A stretch of 64,000 nt of DNA from Owenia fusiformis (taxonomy: Eukaryota > Annelida > Polychaeta > Sabellida > Oweniidae), in contig CAIIXF020000012.1 of assembly GCA_903813345.2 (NCBI GenBank), positions 11,700,932 to 11,764,931 of the forward strand. Direction: 5' to 3'. This document shows positions 2,098 through 46,200 of the stretch, piece by piece (position 1 is the stretch's first letter; every line of letters starts with the position of its first letter). A program made the translations under genes and the position numbers. The notes below the pieces were generated by a model, which saw only the letters and a list, made by a program, of their open reading frames with translations, was not told the origin of the DNA and ran no database searches.

Positions 2098-2883
2098 CTA
2101 GATAACGGCAACTCCGCAGAGTAGCAAATCCCAACGAACAAAATATCAATTACCGAATTCCAATCAATTATACTCATTACTTTGGTTGAAAATGAAAAAA
2201 TTAGATTTTAGAATTGTGAATTCCTGCAAAGCAGCCATTTTGAATTTTCTGAGGTACAAATCTGAAAAATAATACCATAATTGTGATCTACTCCAAAATC
2301 CTTCAATTTGAGTATAATATAGCCATACTTTGAAGGGATCGAAAAATTATTGCGAAATCGTACATGAGACGGCCATTTTGAATGTTACGAGGCTCGAATC
2401 AGAAAAAAGATACAATATTTGCAATCTACTCTTAATTGCCTTTCATTTGAGTATAATAAAGCTATACTTCAGAAAGATCTAAAAATTAGCGAAAATTTCT
2501 GTTTTCCTGTCCCCCCATACATGGCCCCTGGGGGTCAGGATGAGAAACACGGAATATATGTGAAATAGATAAATGTTGTGAATACACTACCAAAATTTCA
2601 AACAATAATATTAATTACTTTGGTTTAGAATGAAAAATTTATGATTTTTGCGAAAAAGTCCCGTCATTTTTAAAGCGGCGGCCATCTTGAAAAAAATTTT
2701 TTTTGCGTAAAACTATTCACCAATATACATCTTTCCACTGAATATGAAGAAAATCTGTCAACTAGTATTTGAGTTATCTTCCGGACAGACGGACGGACTG
2801 ACTGACTGACTGACTGACTGACGGACAGACGGACGGACGGAGGGCTTCACTATATCCCTAACGAACTTCGTTCGTTGGGATAA
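2098..2883 (-). mobile_element. Pearl/HINE-like non-autonomous Helentron element, subfamily 2
   Basis: The paralogous segment near position 190-200 lacks this insertion (GTTGAA joined to TTAGGG), which fixes the ends and shows no target-site duplication. Read on the minus strand, the element begins TATCCCAACGAACGAAG, has a compact hairpin (CGAAC/GTTCG), an ACGG-type microsatellite with CTGA repeats and internal AT-rich units. It then has a second inverted copy of the terminus, a short stem-loop (ACTC-TGCG-GAGT), and ends in CTAG. Subterminal inverted repeats plus a terminal hairpin and CTAG match Helentron-associated (HINE) elements; the class assignment is inference. Confidence 0.65.
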
Positions 2884-3330
2884 TTAGGGAATCATTACAG
2901 GTTTAGACTATGTGCGATGAGATTTGGTAGACACATTGTAATATATGTTCCTCTACAATCTGTAGCAATTTCATCGCGAAAATCCTAAATCTCTTGAAAT
3001 TAGAGTATTTGCATCTTTACTTTCTGGACACCCTGTAATTTGCATATATTCAGTTTATATTTTTATTTTTAATCAATAAATATTATTACATCTTCGATTT
3101 CATCATATGAAAAGCTAAGCTCTCTTTTCACAGGGGTTAACGTTGTTCTCTCTGTGAATTGCATATATGCGCTTCTGAAGAGGACTGGGTTCAATGTATT
3201 CTTCCTCCTTTATCGAGGTGCCATAATCAAATGACAGCTTTGAGCCTAATTTATCACACATTCGGAATCCATAATCCTGTGTTTTGTAACGCCATATGCC
3301 TTTATCACGAAAAGGGACGTCAAGTCTGAA

Positions 3331-18700: not shown

Positions 18701-21700
18701 TAATATGCTTAAAGTTAGTACTTACACTGCGTAAGCGGCACAGCATCAGGATTTCTAGCTCTTTCGTTTCTTCTGTCTGGAAACGGCTGGAGGCAACACT
18801 GGCATAGACAGTGATCTTGATTCTTAGGACACACAAAGTCTGGATATTCTCTAACTAAAACATGATTAATAATGAATTATATTTTAAAAGATGTTACCCT
18901 GTATTTTACATGCACTTTAAATATAAGGAATCAGTGATTATAAATACAAGGGGCGATCCATATATTCTGATAAAAATGCTCTCATTTTGTGATTTTTTTC
19001 ACATATCCCTCTTATTTTTTCAGAAAATGTAGATTATGTAATTACACATACAATGCTAAAATATTATATCTATATCTTAAATTATCAATGAGATAGGTTG
19101 CCATGGTAACCTGTATTAAGGGTAGGCAGGTCAATTAAATTATAACATATAAATATCATAATAACTTGATATTTTAATTATTTTAAAGCATGCGAAAATC
19201 ATGCATTTTTCTAAAAGAGTTTGGTATTGTTACTCTTCACTCTTTGTTTGTTGCTAAACAAATGTTTATATGTGCTCACTATAACATCACAACAAATCAC
19301 AATAGCATTGTAAGACAGAATGGGCCAATTGACATTACATGTTATGAGACACACCAAAAATCAAATTGTCAGATGAGGTTAATGTGGCTGATGCAGAGTG
19401 TGACATTAACGTCTACATTAGGGAATACAATAAGATTTTCTTTTCTTTTAAGAATAAGTTAGAGGACACTTTCAGAGACATACATGGACTTATTAAGTGC
19501 ATGGGCAAGGTGTTATATCTGCATAAAGAATCTATAGGTAGTATTGTAAAGAGGAAGGCATGGTCACTGTTGAAGATCAACCACAATCTTGTTGCAAGAA
19601 GAGCTTGCGGACAGAGAATAATACTACGATAAATTGAGATGTTACTAATGAAAAGATTATCATAGCTATCCCATTGTATAAATTATCAAACAAGGGCAAC
19701 AGGGGTATGGAACAGATCAATGAATAGTTGGCAATGACTGGAAGATGCGTTTGGTCTGCTTAAAATAGGTACCGAGGAATGATTAAATTAACATATTTAT
19801 CTATTTTTGACGTTATAATTTAACCGACCTGCCTACCCTAAATACAGGTTACCATGGCAACTTCATTTCAAAATCAATTTAAGATATAGCTAAAATAGTT
19901 TAGCATCGTATGTGTAATTACATAATCTACATGTTCTGAAAAAATGAAAGGGATATGTTAAAAAACCACAAAATGAGAGCATTTTTATCAGAATATATGG
20001 ATCGCCCCTTGTATATTGTAATAAAATTGTCCAAATAAAAATGAAATCTTGAAAAAACAGATTAAAAATTGTTCATGAAGAATGCATTTACAAAAACTGC
20101 TCAAGAAGACTGAACAAGACAATATGGTGACTTGAAGGTGGGGTTTGTAACTGATCAATGATGACATGGAAGATTCCAGTCGACGTTACAATATGGAGTT
20201 TAAGCTTGCAAAGTTTTTCACAACCTAATCATGAATGAAAAATATTTAAGCAATGCATTTGTATGGGTGATAGATCATACGTATGGGTTGGTGTAATGTA
20301 TATGGAACTAAAAGTTTAAAGTTGATCAAAAGATGGCACTAGAGAATACTAAACTAGAATCAAAACTGAAAAGTGCAATCAGAGAAGCCAATTATAATTT
20401 TGAAAAGAACATGCAGTTCACAAAGAGAAGTCAATGTATCCACATGTAAATATTATGTGAAGATGTAAAATAAGAAATAAGAACATAACGTTGTACAAAT
20501 GAACCAAGAACCAAATAAGAGCGTGAAATAAGCGACAACTATCAGACCTAGCGAGAACATCAAAGGGGCCCCTCGTCATAACGTCCAGAACCCAAGATAG
20601 GCGTCGACAAGGTAGTATATAACAAGATAATAACAACATTACAGTTGGCATTTCGATTTTATATGCAAGCTTAAACTCCCTCATATTAAATCAATACAGC
20701 GAGCAAAAATTGGAAATCATCCTGACTTACCATAGAACACATATCAGATCTATATAATATTGCTCAACCGCTTTCAGTACTATGACCATTACTATATTGC
20801 CAAGTATATTAATGATTTTGTCCTGATGAATGAATACCTTTGTTTTGTGTCCCACTTGTGGACTGCCCTGGATCTGCAGATGTTGAAGGTTCAGTGTTAC
20901 ATGCTCCAGCTTCCCTACTTGAACCTTCACCTGTTGCCCCTGATTTAGAATGTGTAACCCCAGATGTAGAATCAGCAACCCCTGATTTAGAATTTGTAGC
21001 CCCTGTGTTAGTATTTAAGGTACCTGGTTGATTTATGCTTGATGATGGCTCTGATGGTGATGGGTCAATGTTGTTGGTGGCCCCTGCTTTATGGGGACCT
21101 GTATACTCCTTACACTGTCTGCATACAGTTTTAGGAGGTCTAAAATAAATTGTTTAACACTTAAAAAATACTAAGATTAGTGTTTCAGTAAGTAGCAATA
21201 TTCTCCAGTAAAAAAACACGCTATTACTGTTTAGTTCAATAATATTAGATCCTTTTAGATTATTTAGATTCCATTCGATTTTTAGATCCAGAGCCATGTG
21301 CTTTTATATTGCCTAATTACAGTGAAACCTGCGTATATAAAACACCTATGGAGCCACAAAAATGTGTCCACTGTAGGGTGTTTATTACAGAGAGGGTAAT
21401 TTATACAGAAGTCAGTTTAGCATGTGATGAGGAGGGGTGTCCACTAGAGACATGTGTTTACCAGAGAAAGGTGTTCACTGAGACAGGTGTTCACTAGAGA
21501 AAGGTGTTCACTGAGACAGGTGTTCACTAGAGAAAGGTCTTCACTGAGTCAGGTGTTCACTAGAGAAAGGTGTTCACTGAGACAGGTGTTCACTAGAGAA
21601 AGGTGTTCACTGAGACAGGTGTTCACTAGAGAAAGGTCTTCACTGAGTCAGGTGTTCACTAGAGAAAGGTGTTCACTAGAGACAGGTGTTCACTAGAGAA

Positions 21701-24700
21701 AGGTGTTCACTAGAGACAGGTGTTCACTAGAGAAAGGTGTTCACTAGAGACAGGTGTTCACTAGAGACAGGAGTTCACTAGAGAAAGGTGTTCACTGAGA
21801 CAGGTGTTACTGTACACACAAATAAAACATTGCAATCTTGACAACTTACTGGTAATGTTGGAATGGCTGGGCAGGTGTAAAAACTTGTGGCAATCCAAGT
21901 CCAAAGCCTCCAAGTCCTGGAGGAAAAGGAGGAGGTGCGAAGCCTCTCCTGTAATGAAGCACATACATGTACATGTAAATTCAAACAATGTGAGGCTCAA
22001 ATTCTAAGTCCAAAGCCTCCAAGTCCTCAAGAAAAGGAGGAGGGATGAAGCCTTGCCTGTAATAAAGCACATACATGTAAATTCAAACAATGTGAGGCTC
22101 AAATTGTGCGTATTATAGCTGATAACTACAGCTTGCATAACGTTCTAGCATGGAGTAAACTCAATAGGTATTTCAAGATTGTTGGAACCAATATATCTAT
22201 GTTATCACCACCATAACCTTTTTTGGGCCCATTCACATATTTAAGGGATTCTGGGAGATACAAGTGAAAATAGAATCATCAGACTGGATTTAAACCATGA
22301 AATCGACTCTAAAGCCTGAAAAACATGGTACTTGTTTTAATATGACACACATTGATAAATATTGCACTTTCAAGAGCAAAATGGCTGCCATGCTATTGTA
22401 ATTTACCCAGCTTACCTAGCCATTAAACAAATGATCTTAGTTTACTTACCCAAATGCTACAACACCATCATTATTGTCATCACTATTCTCATCATCATCA
22501 TCATTGTCATCACTATATTCATCACTTTCAGAATCATCCCGATTTCTTTTCTTCTTTGGATACAACTTTAAGAGAGTCAATATTTTACAGTTAATCCCCT
22601 CTCCGGAGAATGTTTAATTTCACATGGATATAATTACAATTTTAAGGGTTATGTGAATTATAATCATCTGAGGGTCACTATAAGGTATATACTACATGTA
22701 GTAATGTAACCTTTATTTGTATGGAATAAAATCTATATTTCCAGATCAAGACAGGTTTTCGGATTAAAACCGTATATAATATTAAATAAAATACATTAAA
22801 TAAGGCATTAACATGCAGAATGTCACCACCTGCCATTTGTTAAATTAAAGACACTGCCAGCCAAATGCCCAACACCATCCACAAAAATGTTGAGAACTAT
22901 AACAATATGTCACCACTTGTGGTGGTGATATGATTAAATAAAAATGGAAATGATCGAGCTACAAAGTTTACCATATCTTTTGTGATTTTGTTCTTTGCAT
23001 CAAGTTCTTTAATATCCTCCTCTGGTCTTTTCCTATCAGGGTGTTCTCCAAGGTAAGCATCCACGAGGTTGTTAACGATGTGATTTTTGTTAATACGATC
23101 CACCTTTAGACGACACTGAAAGAATATATAACATAACAAATGAAAGAAAAGTTGTATCAGGGTAGATTTCATGTTTTGATTAACATCACAGAAAATCGTT
23201 TTAATGTTAATTGGCTGATAAAACAAGCTTTTTAGGGTTGCCGATTTGGGCAATCAGTCAAAAGCACCTAACAGGTGCTGTCGCTGTGACCATGGGGTAG
23301 GAGAAGGAGAGGCGTGAGCTCCTTGCGTTTGTTTACTTACAATGAGAGAAGGAGAATGTTTGGTTACTTACGGAAGGACACTCATTTGATCTTTCATGAA
23401 GAGAAAGAGAATGTTTGGGTACTTACTGAAGGACACTCAATTGATCTTTCATGAAGAGAAAGAGAATGTTTGTTTACTTACAGAAGGACACTCATTTGAT
23501 CTTTCATGAAGAGAAAGAAAATGTTTGGGTACTTACGGAAGGACACTCAATTGATCTTTCATGAAGAGAAAGAGAATGTTTGGGTACTTACTGAAGGACA
23601 CTCATTTGATCTTTCATGAAGAGAAAGAGAATGTTTAGGTACTTACAGAATGACACTCGTTTGATCTTTCATGAAGAGAAAGAGAATGTTTGGGTACTTA
23701 TGGAAGGACACTCATTTGATCTTTCATGAAGAGAAAGAGAATGTTTAGGTACTTACAGAATGACACTCGTTTGATCTTTCATGAAGAGAAAGAGAATGTT
23801 TGGGTACTTATGGAAGGACACTCATTTGATCTTTCATGAAGAGAAAGAGTATGTTTAGGTACTTACAGAATGACACTCGTTTGATCTTTCATGAAGAGAA
23901 AGAGAATGTTTGGGTACTTATTGAAGGACACTCATTTGATCTTTCATGAAGAGAAAGAGAATGTTTAGGTACTTACGGAAGGACACTCATTTCATCTTTC
24001 ATGAAGAGAAAGAGAATGTTTGGGTACTTACGGAAGGACACTCGTTTGATCTTTCATGAAGAGAAAGAGTATGTTTAGGTACTTACGGAAGGACACTCAT
24101 TTGATCTTTCATGAAGAGAAAGAGTATGTTTAGGTACTTACGGAAGGACACTCATTTGATCTTTCATGAAGAGAAAGAGAATGTTTGGGTACTTACGGAA
24201 GGACACTCATTTGATCTTTCATGAAGAGAAAGAGAATGTTTAGGTACTTACGGAAGGACACTCATTTCATCTTTCATGAAGAGAAAGAGAATGTTTGGGT
24301 ACTTACGGAAGGACACTCGTTTGATCTTTCATGAAGAGAAAGAGTATGTTTAGGTACTTACGGAAGGACACTCATTTGATCTTTCATGAAGAGAAAGAGA
24401 ATGTTTGGGTACTTACAGAAGGACACTCATTTGATCTTTCATGAAGAGAAAGAGAATGTTTGGGTGCTTACAGAATGACACTCATTTCATCTTTCATGAA
24501 GAGAAAGAGTATGTTTAGGTACTTAGGGAAGGACACTCGTTTGATCTTTCATGAAGAGAAAGAGTATGTTTAGGTACTTACGGAAGGACACTCGTTTGAT
24601 CTTTCATGAAGAGAAAGAGTATGTTTAGGTACTTACGGAAGGACACTCATTTGATCTTTCATGAAGAGAAAGAGTATGTTTAGGTACTTATGGAAGGACA

Positions 24701-27700
24701 CTCATTTGATCTTTCATGAAGAGAAAGAGAATGTTTGGGTGCTTACAGAATGACACTCATTTCATCTTTCATGAAGAGAAAGAGTATGTTTAGGTACTTA
24801 GGGAAGGACACTCGTTTGATCTTTCATGAAGAGAAAGAGTATGTTTAGGTACTTACGGAAGGACACTCGTTTGATCTTTCATGAAGAGAAAGAGTATGTT
24901 TAGGTACTTACGGAAGGACACTCATTTGATCTTTCATGAAGAGAAAGAGTATGTTTAGGTACTTATGGAAGGACACTCATTTGATATTTCATGAAGAGAA
25001 AGAGAATGTTTGGGTACTTATGGAAGGACACTCATTTGATCTTTCATGAAGAGAAAGAGAATGTTTGGTTACTTACAGAAGGACACTCATTTGATCTTTC
25101 ATGAAGAGAAAGAGAATGTTTGGGTACTTACAGAAGGACACTCATTTGATCATTCATGAAGAGAAAGAGAATGTTTGGGTACTTACGGAAGGACACTCAT
25201 TTGATCTTTCATGAAGAGAAAGAGAATGTTTGGGTACTTACAGAAGGACACCCATTTAATCTTTCATGAAGAGAAGGAGAATGTTTGCATACTTACAGAA
25301 GGACACCCATTTAATCTTTCATGAAGAGAATGTTTGGGTACTTACAGAAGGACACTCATTTGATCTTTCCATCCAATCAGAGTAGCATCCAGCGCAGAAA
25401 GAATGCATACATGGCTGCAGACTGGAAAACAAAGAAGTACAGCCATATCATAAAATTGTGACCATTTGGAATAGACCATTGAGTCTTAAGGAATGAAAGT
25501 ACATTGAACAAGTCGATTAAATTGTGCGAAATATGGCTTTAACTCATTTTGTTATTAACATATTTTGTTTGGGTTACTTTTTTCAGCTCACATCGTATTA
25601 TACAAATAGAACACAACATAATGTCAAACCATCCACTATCTATCATTTTTTAGGCAGCATAAAAGTGTCAATGGGTTTCGCATGGACAAAATAAATAAGA
25701 TGCAGAAAAATTTGGAGGTGAATCACTCTGAAAAAAAATCTGGGATGAAATTAATGGGTGTATATCCTCACCTAATACAATCATGCATGATCTCCTGACA
25801 AATTATACATAGCAATGTTTCCTCAATAGCATCAGGTTTTGCCCCCTCAGCTTTCTTACTTATTTCTGCATCTACATTCTTATTTTTAGCATTTTCTTTG
25901 CCTTTCTCAAGTTCCTTCATATTCGTGTCAGTTGATTTTTGGATGGATACATCTTGTTTAATCCCTGTAGTTTTTATAGTATCAATGTCTTTGTTTGTGC
26001 AATTTTCAGCCTCTGAACTCTGATTTTTGACTTTTTCTAAAGTCTGTTTTGTTGATTCACCAATTTTGTTCTGTTGTTTTGTATTATCCAGCTTTTGTTT
26101 CTTGCTTGGAGGGTCCTCAGTAAATTCCTAAAACAAAAATAAAACATAGTCAAGTACTCATACATGTTTCTGGAGATATCATATTGTAGTCCTTCAATAT
26201 GTATTTCTCTATTTTTCTCATATTTCTCCCAAATATCAAGTGTTCAAAATAAACTTCAAATCAATCACAGTCTAACATGAATTAAAGTTTAGAGTCTGTT
26301 TAAATGACTAGATTTCACATTCAGATCTTTAGTTTCTACACTATACTCTAATTAAGATAGATGCCATTCCACGGATCAAACCTCAAACCAGAGCCACATT
26401 GACATTTGAAACATACACAGAAATCAATGAAGCTTAGAAAACCATACCATGTACATGCTGTAAAACATATCATACTTATCTTTGGGGGCATCCAAACCTA
26501 ATGAGGCATTTAACTCTTAGATATGAAGTTTATCAGGCCCATAGTCAGCTTTTGTCAAGTTTAAGTGGGGGAAGGGAGTTAGCCCAAATCACTTGAAAAG
26601 TACTAAACAAGTGAGTGATAGCAAAAGCTCACCATGTGAGCTAAAAATAGTGAAAAATCAGAGGATCTTGAAAGAATTTTTAGCCAAGTACACTGTAGGG
26701 GTTCACTTGCACTTCTGAACCCCCTGGCTACGGGCCTATCTATATCATAATGTCATACTTACCACTGGATCTGTATACTCTAAGGTCCCATCAATCTCTG
26801 CATCAGAACTATACTCCTGTGTGGCATCTTGCATCTCTTGCTCCAATTTTACAAGGTCTTGAAATATATAGGCTACATCTAAAATAAATAGGCTATAATT
26901 TAAATATATGCGCTACATGTGGAACACATAGACGACATCTGAAGACAAGAGCTGAAAAATGTTATACAGGCTTGAAATGGCTTCATAGAATAATAATGGT
27001 ACCAATTCCTTAACAAAAAGAGGTAAAGCAACTGAACTTACTCGTTTCTGGACTGTCTCTCCTGAACACAATATGGATTTCATCTCCATGCTCCAATAGA
27101 TGGCTCTGTAAAAATCAGAATTGCATAAACCTTTTTAACATTTGTCGAAATCGCACGAAGTAAACATGTACATGCACACATATATTTTACATTGTGCATT
27201 GTTTAAAACATTATTAGACTTATTTATTTTAAAGATATTGAATAATTCCGAATAATATTTAATGGCTTCATGAAGGAATATTGCAAGTGAAATTTACAAT
27301 CGTGAGTAAAGAGTACTGCCATACAATAATGATTTATATAAAAGTAGATGCTGGCATCAAAGGCTGCAATTATAATCATTGGGTGCAATGAATGAATATC
27401 AAAGGGTTATCTGAATTTACTCACTCTTTTACATATTCTCTCTTTCATGTTCAATAGGGTGCCATTTGTACTGGTATCCTTCAGTGAGACAATGCCATTT
27501 TTGTCTCTGTATATAGCACAGTGTTTGCCAGATACCATCTTGTTTGATGCCAGGCTGATATCACATCCTTTAAAAAGACATGCAAAAATAAGTACATGTA
27601 GTTTTTATTTCAAAATTCAAAGTGACCATCGAGTTATTTACCCAGCATGCCCAAAACCTAATCAGATCTTGGCTCTAGTCTGCTTTTATTTCTGCAAATA

Positions 27701-28430
27701 TTACAAGTTTAAGAGGTACAGTTGGGGACAAAAATAAATGACAGGTCGATTTTCGATCACCATTTCCTAATTATGGTGGTCTGAAAGCCCATAATTTCCA
27801 ATATTGTCTAGATACATATCCCAATTTGTATATTTTACATTTTGTATAATCTCATCCACTGATTTATGGCCTCTTGTAAATTCTCTTATTTTTAACATGG
27901 GAAATCCTCACTTCAGCAAATCCACCTGTCATTTATTTATGTCCCCAACTGTAAGCAGTTTTCTTGGAATTTAATTATATTGTGCAAGACAAACAACTTG
28001 GTATACATGACACATCAGGCTAATAGCCAGGGGGGGGGGGGGGTTCCATAAGTTTCAAAATTTAACATGGCTCTCGAAGTGAGTAACCTGGGGTAATTTC
28101 CCCTCTTGGAGTAACATGTGGGCGATAATAGGGAATTTTACATGTACCAAAGCAAAACGCATATATGTAAAAATGAAATACATATCAGAGTATTTTACCA
28201 TGATTAATGGTCGAATAAAGGTTTATAATTTCATATCATATCAATTGCTGCTAGAACTAGCATAAAACTAAGCGTAAACACCCAAATTTTTATCAACAAA
28301 AAATGTGAAAAAATAGGAAAATTTTACCTTTGGCCCGTCCAATACAAAATGAGTTTTTATCGATGAAAATCGGTTCTGAATCCAAATCAGTAGTGCATAC
28401 AAGCTGTGCCCACTTCTCCCCACCTTCCAT
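15397..28430 (-). CDS. CHFR: CHFR, checkpoint with forkhead and RING finger domains E3 ubiquitin ligase, 17 exons, complete
   Basis: CHFR is a nuclear RING E3 ligase that delays mitotic entry under microtubule stress and binds poly(ADP-ribose). Coding exons (minus strand): 28328-28430, 27425-27567, 27042-27105, 26763-26878, 25772-26127, 25346-25421, 22972-23115, 22450-22565, 21850-21948, 20838-21139, 18726-18854, 17931-18014, 17101-17207, 16736-16823, 16298-16414, 15721-15796, 15397-15433. All introns are GT-AG and phases agree, giving 718 residues (human protein about 664). Domains in order: FHA (about residues 8-100, IGRAKGCDIS and NKMVSGKHC), a lysine/glutamate-rich linker, RING C3HC4 (C249, C252, C265, H267, C270, C273, C284, C287), an acidic Asp/Asn run and Gly/Pro-rich segment, the Cys-rich region (about 507-660), and a C-terminal PBZ zinc finger. 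The start is the first ATG after an in-frame stop. The linker and the serine/threonine-rich exon 10 are the least conserved parts. Identification is by remembered family sequence. Confidence 0.95.
15530..15669. repeat. Short GTCACCAC interspersed element, copy 1 (CHFR intron 16)
   Basis: A ~140-bp repeat beginning AAGGCATTAATATGCAAAAT and ending near GTTGACATAA. The family carries ATGTCACCAC near one end and GTGGTGACAT at the other. Further copies lie at about 17714-17805, 22801-22931, 35494-35622, 36184-36311, 46238-46305, 57340-57475 and (inverted, interrupted) 58962-59163. Confidence 0.75.
15989..16105. repeat. Short inverted repeat in CHFR intron 15
   Basis: CAACCTTGATTTAGC near 15989 recurs inverted as AAATCAAGGTT near 16090-16100, with further ATTGATTTAA/TTAAATCAAT pairing inside. 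Likely a short TIR derivative. Confidence 0.5.
17714..17805. repeat. GTCACCAC element, copy 2, truncated (CHFR intron 12)
   Basis: AAGGCATTAACATGCAAAAT followed by GTCACAGCCTGCCATTTG. The match to the other copies stops before the second end. Confidence 0.65.
18945..20013. mobile_element. 1.07-kb element with ~200-bp terminal inverted repeats (CHFR intron 10)
   Basis: TACAAGGGGCGATCCATATA at the left recurs inverted ending at 20013. The arms extend about 18945-19145 and 19809-20013. TA at both edges suits a TA target duplication as in Tc1/mariner relatives. The ~660-bp interior has two overlapping plus frames (19190-19462 and 19366-19632) that I do not recognise. It is the largest insertion in the gene and lies clear of both splice sites. 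Confidence 0.8.
20014..20837. other. CHFR intron 10 remainder
   Basis: Non-coding AT-rich intron sequence between the long-TIR element and exon 10. No repeat or gene is recognised. Confidence 0.5.
21318..21814. mobile_element. Short TIR element carrying an internal 33-bp minisatellite (CHFR intron 9)
   Basis: TACAGTGAAACCTG at the left end and its approximate inverse CAGGTGTTACTGTA at the right define the element, with TA at the edges. From about 21452 to 21805 it is filled by ~33-bp units made of GGTGTTCACTAGAGAAA and GGTGTTCACTGAGACA half-units, which resemble the right terminus. It ends about 35 bases from the donor site of exon 9. Reading frames through it are repeat translations. Confidence 0.75.
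21897..22107. repeat. Direct duplication of the exon 9 acceptor half
   Basis: About 105 bases covering the 5' half of CHFR exon 9, its 3' splice site and ~50 bases of intron (21897-22004) are repeated at 22005-22107. The second copy keeps the acceptor (TTACAG on the minus strand) but lost two bases plus others in its exon part and has no donor. It looks like a decaying decoy exon. Confidence 0.8.
22801..22931. repeat. GTCACCAC element, copy 3 (CHFR intron 7)
   Basis: Runs from AAGGCATTAACATGCAGAAT to CACTTGTGGTGGTGATAT; the two ends form the inverted GTCACCAC/GTGGTGA pair. It ends ~40 bases from exon 7. Confidence 0.75.
23345..25345 (-). repeat. 55-bp minisatellite built from the CHFR exon 6 splice donor, 36 units
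   Basis: Units are phased every 55 bases from 23366 (ACTTAC on the plus strand) to 25291; the real donor is at 25340-25345. On the minus strand each unit contains the last ~25 bases of exon 6 (AAAGATCAAATGAGTGTCC), the donor GTAAGTACC and ~28 bases of intron. By my count 28 of the 36 extra units keep GT at the donor position, six have AT and two have CT. Units 21-25 and 26-30 form a five-unit higher-order repeat. Confidence 0.95.
25346..26127 (-). CDS. CHFR: CHFR exons 5 and 6: basic linker and RING finger
   Basis: Exon 5 (25772-26127) ends with the first RING cysteines (LLCIICQEIMHDCI). Exon 6 (25346-25421) supplies LQPCMHSFCAGCYSDWMERS and ECPS, and the last cysteine opens exon 7. All eight zinc ligands are present. 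The 3' end and donor site of exon 6 are the seed of the 55-bp minisatellite that fills the next intron. Confidence 0.93.
26536..26738. repeat. CAGGCCCGTAGCC-type short TIR element (CHFR intron 4)
   Basis: CAGGCCCATAGTCAGC at the left and GGCTACGGGCCT at the right form the inverted ends. Related copies lie at about 33870-34014 and 50786-50994. Confidence 0.65.
27425..27567 (-). CDS. CHFR: CHFR exon 2: core of the FHA domain
   Basis: Carries the FHA signatures NKMVSGKHC and DTSTNGTLLN, whose Ser, His and Asn residues contact phosphothreonine in the family. It is entered in phase 1 and left in phase 0. Confidence 0.92.
27717..27953. mobile_element. 237-bp short TIR element (CHFR intron 1)
   Basis: TACAGTTGGGGACAAAAATA at 27717 recurs inverted ending at 27953 with ~30-bp arms. 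The edges are TA, typical of a Tc1/mariner-derived MITE. It lies between exons 1 and 2. Confidence 0.85.
28328..28430 (-). CDS. CHFR: CHFR exon 1: start codon and beginning of FHA domain
   Basis: Encodes 34 residues from MEGGEKW to CIGRAK and ends in phase 1 at a GTAAAA donor. The FHA domain binds phosphothreonine; its IGR motif starts here, and the GCDIS strand follows on exon 2. An in-frame TGA upstream excludes a longer start within this exon. Confidence 0.9.
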
Positions 28431-43200: not shown

Positions 43201-46200
43201 GATTGTCATTATAGAGAATATCAAAATGTAAGGGCATCCAGCAGTCTCCCAAGATTTATTTTGATTTGGTACTTTATAACTTTAACCCCCTTCCTATGCT
43301 ACTTAGTAAAGAGCATGACTGGGGAAGTTAACTAAGATATTTGATCTGTGAGTTAACTTAAATTGTAATAAAAAGTCTGCATTTCAAAGTTTTATAACTA
43401 GCAAGTTAATTGGAATGATTGAGAAGGGAACAGAAGTTGATGCTTTAATAACACTTTTAACACGAGGTTAATGTGACCTTATAGAAGTTGATTCAAAGCA
43501 AGCATAATGTAGCTATCAGTTGTATACTTTGTTGTATTATCATTTTCTAGTGAAACTGGTGATTAAACAAGTAGAAATTGCAAATCAAAAAATAGCTACA
43601 TTTCTCACTAGAGTTCTTTGTTGAAGTAGCAAGCAACCCAACATGAACCCCTAGGCTTACAGTATACATGTATAGTACTACAAAATAGCAATGACAATCT
43701 ACTTTCCACTTGATAGATCATTTTTTCACTTTACCTCAAGAGTATTAAACTGCAAGTTTCTACACAAGAGCCCATTTTTCACTTTGCCCACATTCATGCA
43801 CTCATAAATGTAGGCTCAAGTACAAATTGCAATAACAATGTGTCCCCATAATAGCTCATTTTTCACTTGGCCACCTAACATGCAATCCTAAATGCAGGCT
43901 CAAATGCAAATTGCAAAGGCGGTGTGTTCCACATAATAGCTCATTTTTTCACTTGGCCACCTAACATGCAATCCTAAATGCAGGCTCAAATGCAAATTGC
44001 AAAGGCGATGTGTTCCACATAATAGCTCATTTTTTCACTTGGCCACCTAACATGCAATCCTAAATGCAGGCTCAAATGCAAATTGCAAAGGCGGTGTGTT
44101 CCACATAATAGCTCATTTTTTCACTTGGCCACCTAACATGCAATCCTAAATGCAGGCTCAAATGCAAATTGCAAAGGCGATGTGTTCCGCATAATAGCTC
44201 ATTTTTTCACTTGGCCACCTAACATGCAATCCTAAATGCAGGCTCAAATGCAAATTGCAATAGCAATCAGTTACTTAATAGCTCATTTCTATCTTCACTT
44301 GGCCACCAAACAGGGCACAGGCACTCCTAAATTTTCACTTGGCCACCTAATAGCATGCAATCCTAAATGCAGGCTCAAGTGCAAATTGCAATGGCAATAT
44401 GTCACATTTAATAGCTCATTTCTTCACTTGGCGACCCAACTCGCATTCCCAGGCTAGAATGCAAATTGCAATGTAAATGTCAATGTGTCTGACTAAAAGG
44501 TTCATTTTTCACTTGGCCAACCTATATGCACATCTATGCTTAACAAATGGATCAGAAACACTACAAAACAGTGTCACATAGACATTTGTAATGACAATTT
44601 TACCAGGTAGTTACTTGAGCTTATTACACTGCTAAGACACCCAAGCTGGATGAATAAGGCTAAGATGGTTCCAATTCAGCTTAAAAACAGACACAGAAAA
44701 ATTAAACAATGTGTGTCTACAAAACTGGCAATTGCCCATCATAAAGCTTTTTTACATATGAATTATAGCTTATTTATTGGCCATGTGTCAAATCATCCAT
44801 CGAGAGTTCAGCAGAATCTTGCTGCAACATGTTTCAATCTGTACGAGTAAGGAGCAAGGGGGGGGGGGGGGGGGGGGGGGGGTGCTGCGATTGGTAAAGG
44901 TTGGTCAAATTAGCATTTTTAACCAAAATTGATGTTTTTGTTAGAAATTGGCAATTTTAGCCCTCTTCGAAAAATCAAACTACCCTGACAGGCCTTGTAC
45001 ATGGTGAGGAACATTTACCTCACTAAGTGGGGCACATTACCGCACTCAGTGAGGCACATTACCGCACTCAGTGAGGCACATTACCGCACTCAGTTAGGCA
45101 CATTACCACACTCAGTGAGGCACATTACCACACTCAGTGAGGCACATTACCGCACTCAGTGAGGCACATTACCGCACTCAGTGAGGCACATTACCGCACT
45201 CAGTGAGGCACATTACCGCACTCAGTGAGGCACATTACCGCACTCAGTGAGGCACATTACCACACTCAGTGAGGCACATTACCACACTCAGTGAGGCACA
45301 TTACCACACTCAGTGAGGTACATTACCGCACTCAGTGAGGCACATTACCACACTCAGTGAGGCACATTACCACACTCAGTGAGGCACATAACCACACTCA
45401 GTGAGGCACATTACCACACTCAGTGAGGCACATTACCACACTCAGTGAGGCACATTACCACACTCAGTGAGGTACATTACCGCACTCAGTGAGGTACATT
45501 ACCGCACTCAGTGAGGCATATTACAACACTGCCTTTGACATAACCACATGACAAGCATTCGGGAGCATGATAAATTTTTTCATGGTGTGACATTGTAGCG
45601 AAATGTTAAAAAGTAAAGTGCTTAATAGCCTTTCTTATCAGTCAATGAAAGGTGAGCATCTTTTTAAATTACATACTCTTAACAAATGTGAACAAAGTGC
45701 ACAAGTTCAGTATGATCTTGAAGTCAGCTGCAAATAAGCATGTGTAATGTTACAGTCTAATGGGATTTATCGCAGGGATCATTTAGCAAGGATCTTATGT
45801 AGGTTTAATGATATGTGTGTTGATTACCCATTTGTTATTTAAATTAACAAGTTCAAGTAAAGTTCACACTGTAAAAAAGCGAGTACAAACTCTGTGAGTA
45901 AAGAATGTTGCTAAAATTTCCCAAAATTAATAAATACAGAATGTGTGATGTAATTTATTGGTATTTGTTAAAAGATGTTAGTCTAAACAGTAAACAGTGA
46001 TCTGCTGGGTGTTGAGCTAGCATATGATAGCATATTTATAAATTGTAACTAACATCTATATTGTTGCAAACCAAAACTACATTGTTGCAATTGCCAATCC
46101 ACTTTCTTTACAACTCAAACAATGAACAATTTATTGCCTTTTTGGAAAGTGAATATGTCAAAATATGCACTACTGAAAGATAAGACGGAGAGAAAACTAC

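What the first reader, a model, noticed from the sequence alone, without database searches (positions are those of the whole stretch)
23345..25421. A minisatellite of 36 copies of the CHFR RING-exon 5' splice site
The 55-bp unit is not random intron sequence. On the minus strand it holds the last ~25 bases of exon 6, the donor GTAAGTACC and ~28 bases of intron, so the gene's own exon-intron junction has been amplified ~36 times directly behind the real donor. By my count 28 units keep GT, six read AT and two read CT. Many intact copies match U1 as well as the true donor. This could saturate U1 binding, allow alternative exon 6 ends inside a RING domain, or reflect a recombination hotspot at the junction. 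No unit supplies an acceptor, so use of a distal donor would add many 55-bp units to the message, with frame disruption (55 is not a multiple of 3).
Basis: partly seen in the sequence, partly recalled or inferred. Interest (0 to 1): 0.8.

Follow-up and report, generated by a model that had tools for sequence, protein, structure and literature searches.

The report
Splice-junction minisatellite in CHFR gene
A short piece of DNA spanning the end of one protein-coding segment and the start of the next intron has been copied 36 more times in a row inside a cell-cycle gene; this looks like a known but little-studied kind of neutral repeat that turned up at other genes of the same animal genome.

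Summary
Behind the exon-6 donor of a CHFR gene lie 36 further tandem copies of the junction (24 exonic plus 31 intronic bases each): 28 keep GT, 6 read AT, 2 read CT. They fill 2001 of the intron's 2230 nt. 26 of 36 copies pair with U1 at least as well as the true donor.

The special readings are weaker. Any distal donor meets an in-frame TGA 24 nt into the intron; donor bases in the copies are neither protected nor specially degraded; five of six AT losses fit CpG decay.

It is not unique. Of 10 consensus-donor arrays in one capped listing, 8 begin at an apparent coding exon end (three with Pfam E<0.001). Of 12 chosen acceptor-motif arrays, 5 end at one (three with E<0.001). Such border-spanning repeats are known in amphioxus as "mirages", reported not to disturb splicing (PMC3087553, PMC3902484, passages). 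This host is probably an annelid. Best reading: a neutral mirage-type minisatellite with the first donor used. RNA and population data are missing.

The parts
25346..25421 (-). CHFR exon 6 of my model (76 nt), encodes LQPCMHSFCAGCYSDWMERSNECPS of the RING; the last RING cysteine comes from exon 7
   Evidence: gene model with AG/GT borders and intact frame; Pfam RING and PDB matches
25340..25345 (-). true donor GTAAGT of intron 6, U1 duplex -6.8 kcal/mol
23116..25345 (-). intron 6, 2230 nt, phase 0; 2001 nt are array and 229 nt remain before exon 7
25321..25369 (-). unit 0: real exon end plus 25 intron bases; 49 bp, 6 bp shorter than the others in its pyrimidine tract
23345..25320 (-). 36 tandem copies of the junction, 55 bp each (the last with a degenerate end); donors 28 GT, 6 AT (units 6, 7, 12, 26, 28, 30), 2 CT (units 10, 15)
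24441..24935 (-). units 8-16: units 8-11 and 13-16 are the same four unit types in the same order (5-unit spacing, 275 bp); further block repeats at units 18-20/23-25 and 28-29/30-31
   Evidence: unit-type string; coordinates checked
25319..25321 (-). in-frame TGA met when exon 6 is read through its donor (CPSVSTQTFSS then stop); lies before the first copy's donor
22972..23115 (-). exon 7, begins with the last RING cysteine codon (TGT CGT)
   Evidence: the genome protein search matches it at G000:C12:11723903-11724049
21891..22101 (-). two-copy tandem duplication of an acceptor junction in a later part of the same gene (about 22101-21998 and 21999-21891)
   Evidence: local alignment; sequence

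Best explanation
A stretch of about 55 bp straddling the exon 6/intron 6 border of CHFR was tandemly duplicated and then grew to 36 extra copies by unequal or slippage-type duplication of single units and blocks of units. Because all copies lie downstream of the real border they are intronic. The array persists because the outermost, first-transcribed donor still defines the 76-nt exon, and the decoys drift neutrally. It is a mirage-type minisatellite, one of several exon-border arrays found in this genome. Shown: anatomy, copy number, block duplications, lack of constraint on the donor bases here, the stop codon, and other such arrays. Inferred: that only the first donor is normally used, that rare distal use gives a truncated RING or an mRNA degraded for its premature stop, and the duplication mechanism.
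For: Array and counts. The exon is the source and not the copy: its last 24 bases encode RING residues in a frame matched by Pfam and PDB. Repeated blocks of units. Neutral pattern: diversity is 0.077 in the exon-derived part, 0.082 in the donor hexamer and 0.055 in the rest; 21 of 45 hexamer windows are less variable than the donor. Five of the six AT donors stand in CCAT, as expected from decay of the CpG made by the copies' C at -1 (C in 21 of 35 units; the real exon has T). A distal donor always brings the in-frame TGA. The same architecture at unrelated genes: 8 of 10 arrays in the capped listing start at an open exon with acceptor and donor, three with Pfam support (Rieske_4, Tudor, NIF). 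Exon ends also at 4 of 8 inspected arrays, two with Pfam support (Muted 5.9e-15; SAD_SRA 7.1e-11). Literature: amphioxus mirages, reported not to interfere with regular splicing (passages of PMC3087553; PMC3902484).
Against: In two of the four donor arrays tested the donor is among the least variable hexamers (L063: 2 of 45 windows less variable, 18 copies; L064: 0 of 45, 7 copies; L062: 20 of 45, 31 copies). L062-L064 were found by a search requiring consecutive GTAAGT, so this may be ascertainment. Consensus-donor arrays exceed the reversed-motif control (503 against 203 hits) although the single motif is rarer (20,041 against 23,050), which leaves room for preferential seeding at donors; in distinct arrays over the same stretch of genome it is 10 against 6. 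No RNA or second individual was available.
Confidence: 0.76

Rival explanations
1. The array is a splicing regulator: decoy donors bind U1 and at times capture splicing, giving stop-containing CHFR transcripts that lower CHFR output (unproductive splicing), or they protect the intron by U1 binding.
For: 26 of 36 copies pair with U1 at least as well as the true donor. Human IFI6 uses two downstream repeat units as donors (one sentence in the introduction of PMC4526556). All distal-donor isoforms would contain a stop.
Against: No sign of constraint on donor bases in this array. Similar arrays sit at functionally unrelated genes. Amphioxus mirages are reported not to disturb splicing.
Confidence: 0.1
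2. Splice junctions are preferred birth sites of minisatellites in this genome (for example through co-transcriptional R-loops or breaks at exon ends), so the CHFR array reflects a junction-coupled mutational mechanism.
For: Consensus-donor arrays exceed the reversed control although the single motif is rarer. 8 of 10 listed consensus-donor arrays are at apparent exon ends. Acceptor-border arrays also occur. CHFR itself carries a second border duplication.
Against: The excess in distinct arrays is small (10 against 6). The hexamer GTAAGT shows little excess (8,216 against 7,796 and 5,723 against 5,468 hits). The window alone has about ten arrays of three or more copies with period 15 or more, so with some 200,000 introns (assumed, not counted) chance overlap with donors would already give hundreds of cases.
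Confidence: 0.2
3. Assembly error: a collapsed or expanded repeat that is not in the animal.
For: Tandem arrays are a common source of assembly faults; reads could not be inspected.
Against: 22 unit types among the 35 regular units, in a non-trivial order. A long contig of a 498-Mb assembly in 525 pieces. Other such arrays in the same assembly.
Confidence: 0.05

Closest known systems
Mirages of amphioxus (Adh3, globins BflGb6 and BflGb9, troponin C, PGBD5); passages of PMC3087553 and PMC3902484 seen, the primary Adh paper not held
   Same: Minisatellite-like tandem repeats that span an exon-intron boundary, at either border, with splice signals in many units; several genes of one genome
   Different: The globin cases have few units (6 and 3 in two haplotypes of BflGb6; one duplicate in BflGb9); here there are 36 extra copies. 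Host probably an annelid. Normal splicing and instability are reported there and untested here.
Human IFI6 (6-16, G1P3) minisatellite that provides multiple splice donors (Turri et al. 1995; known here from its title in reference lists and one citing sentence, PMC306954 not held)
   Same: Tandem units, each usable as a donor, at a splice donor
   Different: There two downstream units are used, giving three mRNAs; unit use here is unknown and would truncate the protein.
Tandem repeats at exon-intron boundaries of human genes in segmental duplications (PMC2812944, passages)
   Same: Minisatellites at borders that change the splicing pattern
   Different: Short arrays (on average 30-bp units repeated 4 times) with transcript evidence of new introns
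Intron gain by tandem duplication across a border (potato RdRp, PMC4974935, passages)
   Same: A duplicated segment crosses an intron-exon border
   Different: A tandem duplication that created a new intron; here an existing intron was enlarged

Membership tests
Mirage (border-spanning minisatellite) | Tandem repeat spans an exon-intron boundary, the outermost copy being the real border | tested here: met
Mirage (border-spanning minisatellite) | Units contain splice signals in many but not all copies | tested here: met
   28 of 36 GT
Mirage (border-spanning minisatellite) | Occurs at several genes of the genome and at both 5' and 3' intron borders | tested here: met
   donor side: with Pfam support; acceptor side: with Pfam p450 5.1e-14, Neur_chan_LBD 1.1e-14 and nSTAND3 5.4e-5 (the last below its curated cut-off)
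Mirage (border-spanning minisatellite) | Regular splicing of the mRNA is not disturbed | not testable with these tools
   no RNA data
Mirage (border-spanning minisatellite) | Length instability between haplotypes or somatically | not testable with these tools
   one assembly only; indirect: block duplications inside the array
IFI6-type donor minisatellite (alternative donors in use) | Donors of downstream units are used in transcripts | not testable with these tools
   no RNA data; only U1 pairing was computed
Transposable element or dispersed repeat | Related copies elsewhere in the genome | tested here: not met
   DNA search of the assembly with 23345-25421 found one place only; that search skips simple repeats and very common words

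The most novel reading that the evidence does not exclude
In this animal, exon borders are a preferred nursery of minisatellites. Hundreds of introns carry arrays of their own donor or acceptor border, a splicing-coupled mutational process that enlarges introns, supplies decoy sites that splicing must ignore by a first-transcribed-first-used rule, and now and then adds coding repeats, as the fully open 54-bp array behind the tetraspanin-like exon of L063 could.
Probability: 0.15. Interest if true: 0.7.

Novelty: new member of a known kind. Interest (0 to 1): 0.42.

Why it matters
The CHFR array is a natural test of how a cell chooses among 27 near-identical donors (the true one and 26 GTAAGT copies) in one intron: proximity to the acceptor would favour the last, order of transcription and exon definition the first. 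A genome with many such loci would let this be measured without engineering. It also extends a phenomenon noted in a few amphioxus genes to what is probably an annelid, with arrays at both borders that could lengthen introns or start intron gain.

Tried and rejected
U1 saturation or regulated alternative RING ends: kept only as a rival; no constraint on donor bases and an in-frame stop in every distal-donor isoform. Dispersed repeat: one genomic place. Second CHFR copy that might lack the array: a search with 94 residues of exons 5-7 gave 32 matches; 3 are the CHFR exons of this window, the other 29 have 33-48% identity and look like other RING genes. Naming the species by assembly size: two unrelated plant papers. 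Mitochondrial COX1 for naming the clade: no match. GFP family (plentiful in amphioxus, recalled): no match, but no control rang. Molluscan haemocyanin domain: no match, no control rang. Annelid erythrocruorin linker domain: three matches over cut-off within 15 kb of C6, one with an internal TAA, none in the 14 control genomes, hence 'probably an annelid'; that the domain is annelid-specific is recalled.

Weakness of the survey: the listings are capped and show only the first places (C1, and part of C2). The 100 rows make 10 arrays when blocks within about 2 kb are merged. The 10 regions and 12 were picked by eye, not at random; of the 10 the flanks of 8 were read. L064, L072, L076, L079, L080, L082, L083 and L085 have no Pfam match under 0.001, and L063 scores E=0.058; these rest on open frame, acceptor and donor. 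One search confirmed an open exon for 11 of the 12 donor cases; for L063 the script took the upstream copy of its duplicated acceptor (204 nt, no open frame), while the exon from the nearer acceptor is open. In one search the frame of L072 was not placed because I had typed a wrong first residue; one search placed it.
Full report
OBSERVATION. The window's minus strand carries a CHFR gene. I joined eight exons with AG/GT borders and an unbroken frame, from a presumed start codon at 28430. The joined protein matches FHA (E=6.6e-15) and RING (1e-8) in Pfam, and pieces downstream match zf-CRD (9.4e-7 and, below the curated cut-off, 1e-4). The best PDB match is the FHA domain of human CHFR, 1lgp, E=7.9e-24. 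Exon 6 of this model is 25421-25346 and ends CCTTCT|GTAAGTACC; exon 7 starts at 23115 and supplies the last RING cysteine. Intron 6 is 2230 nt. TRF reports 36.9 copies of a 55-bp unit at 23345-25369. Splitting by unit gives unit 0 (the real border, 49 bp) and 36 further copies, with 28 GT, 6 AT and 2 CT at the donor position. The array makes up 2001 of 2230 intron bases, leaving 229 nt before exon 7.

DIRECTION OF COPYING. The exon-derived 24 bases of the unit encode RING residues in unit 0, in a frame supported by Pfam and PDB matches, so the exon is the source. The 35 regular copies differ from one another by 3.7 bases per unit on average (6.7%) and fall into 22 unit types. The type string (ABCDEFGHIJKLHIJKMHNOCHHNOPQFRFRSTUV) shows repeated blocks HIJK, HNO and FR, i.e. 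growth by duplication of several units at once.

DECOY DONORS. U1 duplex energy is -6.8 for the true donor; 26 of the 36 copies are at least as good. Of the other seven donors of the modelled exons five are stronger or equal and two weaker. Donor bases in the copies vary like the rest (diversity 0.082 against 0.077 in the exon part and 0.055 in the remaining intron part; 21 of 45 hexamer windows are less variable). The copies have C before the donor in 21 of 35 units where the exon has T; with the donor G this makes a CpG, and five of the six AT donors read CCAT, the expected decay product. Over four donor arrays held in full (CHFR, L062, L063, L064) 80 of 91 contiguous copies keep GT. In L063 and L064 the donor is among the least variable hexamers (2 and 0 of 45 windows less variable), in L062 it is not (20 of 45); those three arrays were found by a search for consecutive GTAAGT.

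CONSEQUENCE OF DISTAL USE. Reading past the true donor gives CPSVSTQTFSS and then TGA (25321-25319), before the donor of copy 1. Use of any copy's donor therefore truncates CHFR inside the RING; frame (49, 104, 159... added bases) does not matter. Whether such mRNA is degraded is inference.

NOT UNIQUE. A DNA search of the assembly (498 Mb, 525 contigs) finds this array once, but the architecture recurs. A search for three consensus donors MAGGTRAGT at 34-64 bp spacing gave 503 hits against 203 for the reversed motif, while the single motif is rarer than its reverse (20,041 against 23,050). The 100 listed hits (C1 and C2 up to 27.5 Mb) form 10 arrays when blocks within about 2 kb are merged. 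I fetched their 5' ends: 8 of 10 start at the end of an open exon with acceptor and donor; L075 and L081 do not. Three of these eight have Pfam support: Rieske_4 3.4e-8 (L073), Tudor 1.1e-10 (L077), NIF 4.9e-6 (L078); L079 scores 0.02 and L072, L076, L080, L082 nothing. From the GTAAGT listings I chose ten regions and read eight flanks: four are exon ends, two with Pfam support, Muted 5.9e-15 (L062) and SAD_SRA 7.1e-11 (L070); the tetraspanin-like exon of L063 scores only E=0.058. Of these twelve exons eleven would meet an in-frame stop within 75 nt of reading past the donor; L063 is open for 996 nt. For acceptors, TTTYAGG triplets gave 2,393 hits against 552 for the reversed motif, inflated by a dispersed element visible in the list. 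Of 12 chosen loci five end at an apparent exon start, three with Pfam E<0.001: p450 5.1e-14 (L084), Neur_chan_LBD 1.1e-14 (L088) and nSTAND3 5.4e-5, below its curated cut-off (L090). CHFR itself has a two-copy acceptor duplication at about 22101-21891. So border arrays are a recurrent class in this genome, at both borders; their total number was not counted.

IS THE JUNCTION A PREFERRED SITE? Unresolved. For distinct arrays over the same genome stretch (C1 and C2 up to 27.5 Mb) the comparison is 10 donor against 6 control arrays. For plain GTAAGT there is little excess (8,216 against 7,796 and 5,723 against 5,468 hits). The window is rich in tandem repeats (46 TRF rows). With an assumed 200,000 introns, chance overlap would already give hundreds of border arrays. 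I therefore prefer random birth plus tolerance, since a border duplicate leaves the outermost border intact.

KNOWN KIND. [quoted passage not shown] PMC3902484 (passage) adds PGBD5 and cites Adh and troponin C. A human case, IFI6, uses two downstream repeat units as donors (one sentence of PMC4526556; the 1995 paper appears in the reference lists of PMC4526556 and PMC2572611, and is not held). The search for annelid, minisatellite, introns, tandem repeats and splice together found one paper, on earthworm metallothionein genes; [quoted passage not shown] In the listings of my searches I saw no report of mirages in annelids; most subscription papers are not held.

HOST. Three erythrocruorin-linker matches over the Pfam cut-off in one 15-kb stretch of C6, one with an internal stop, suggest an annelid. 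No GFP match (no positive control) and 36.6% G+C over the fetched, partly overlapping loci fit poorly with amphioxus, by recall. The species is unknown.

VERDICT. Real and correctly read at the sequence level; a mirage-type minisatellite by the features that could be tested; most likely neutral, with the first donor used. The value lies in the recurrent class and in the natural experiment on donor choice, rather than in a CHFR-specific device.

Noticed in passing
L063 (G000:C1:440500-446500), array at 2207-3188: Border array behind a tetraspanin-like exon has a 54-bp period (18 codons) and is open in frame for 996 nt past the donor: intron retention or distal donors would add repeats such as VSSIYIIIGIGIGIGVVE to the protein. 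Its acceptor border is duplicated too.
   Followed up: partly
window about 21891-22101, minus strand: Two-copy tandem duplication of an acceptor junction within the same CHFR gene, so this gene has border duplications at both kinds of splice site.
   Followed up: partly
window 21436-21812: A 17/33-bp minisatellite begins 37 bases behind an apparent further CHFR donor at 21849; its units contain CACCTTTCTCTAG, which resembles an acceptor.
   Followed up: no
L082 (G000:C2:27478281-27479081): One exon appears to have border repeats on both sides: several copies of its acceptor border upstream and a donor array downstream.
   Followed up: no
L073 and L074 (G000:C1:6976237-6979302): The donor array behind a Rieske exon appears to continue in a second block about 1.2 kb further on, as if split by an inserted sequence.
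   Followed up: no
window 45004-45530: Another well-kept minisatellite, 23.9 copies of 22 bp (GTGAGGCACATTACCACACTCA), each consensus unit with GTGAGG; its relation to an exon was not checked.
   Followed up: no
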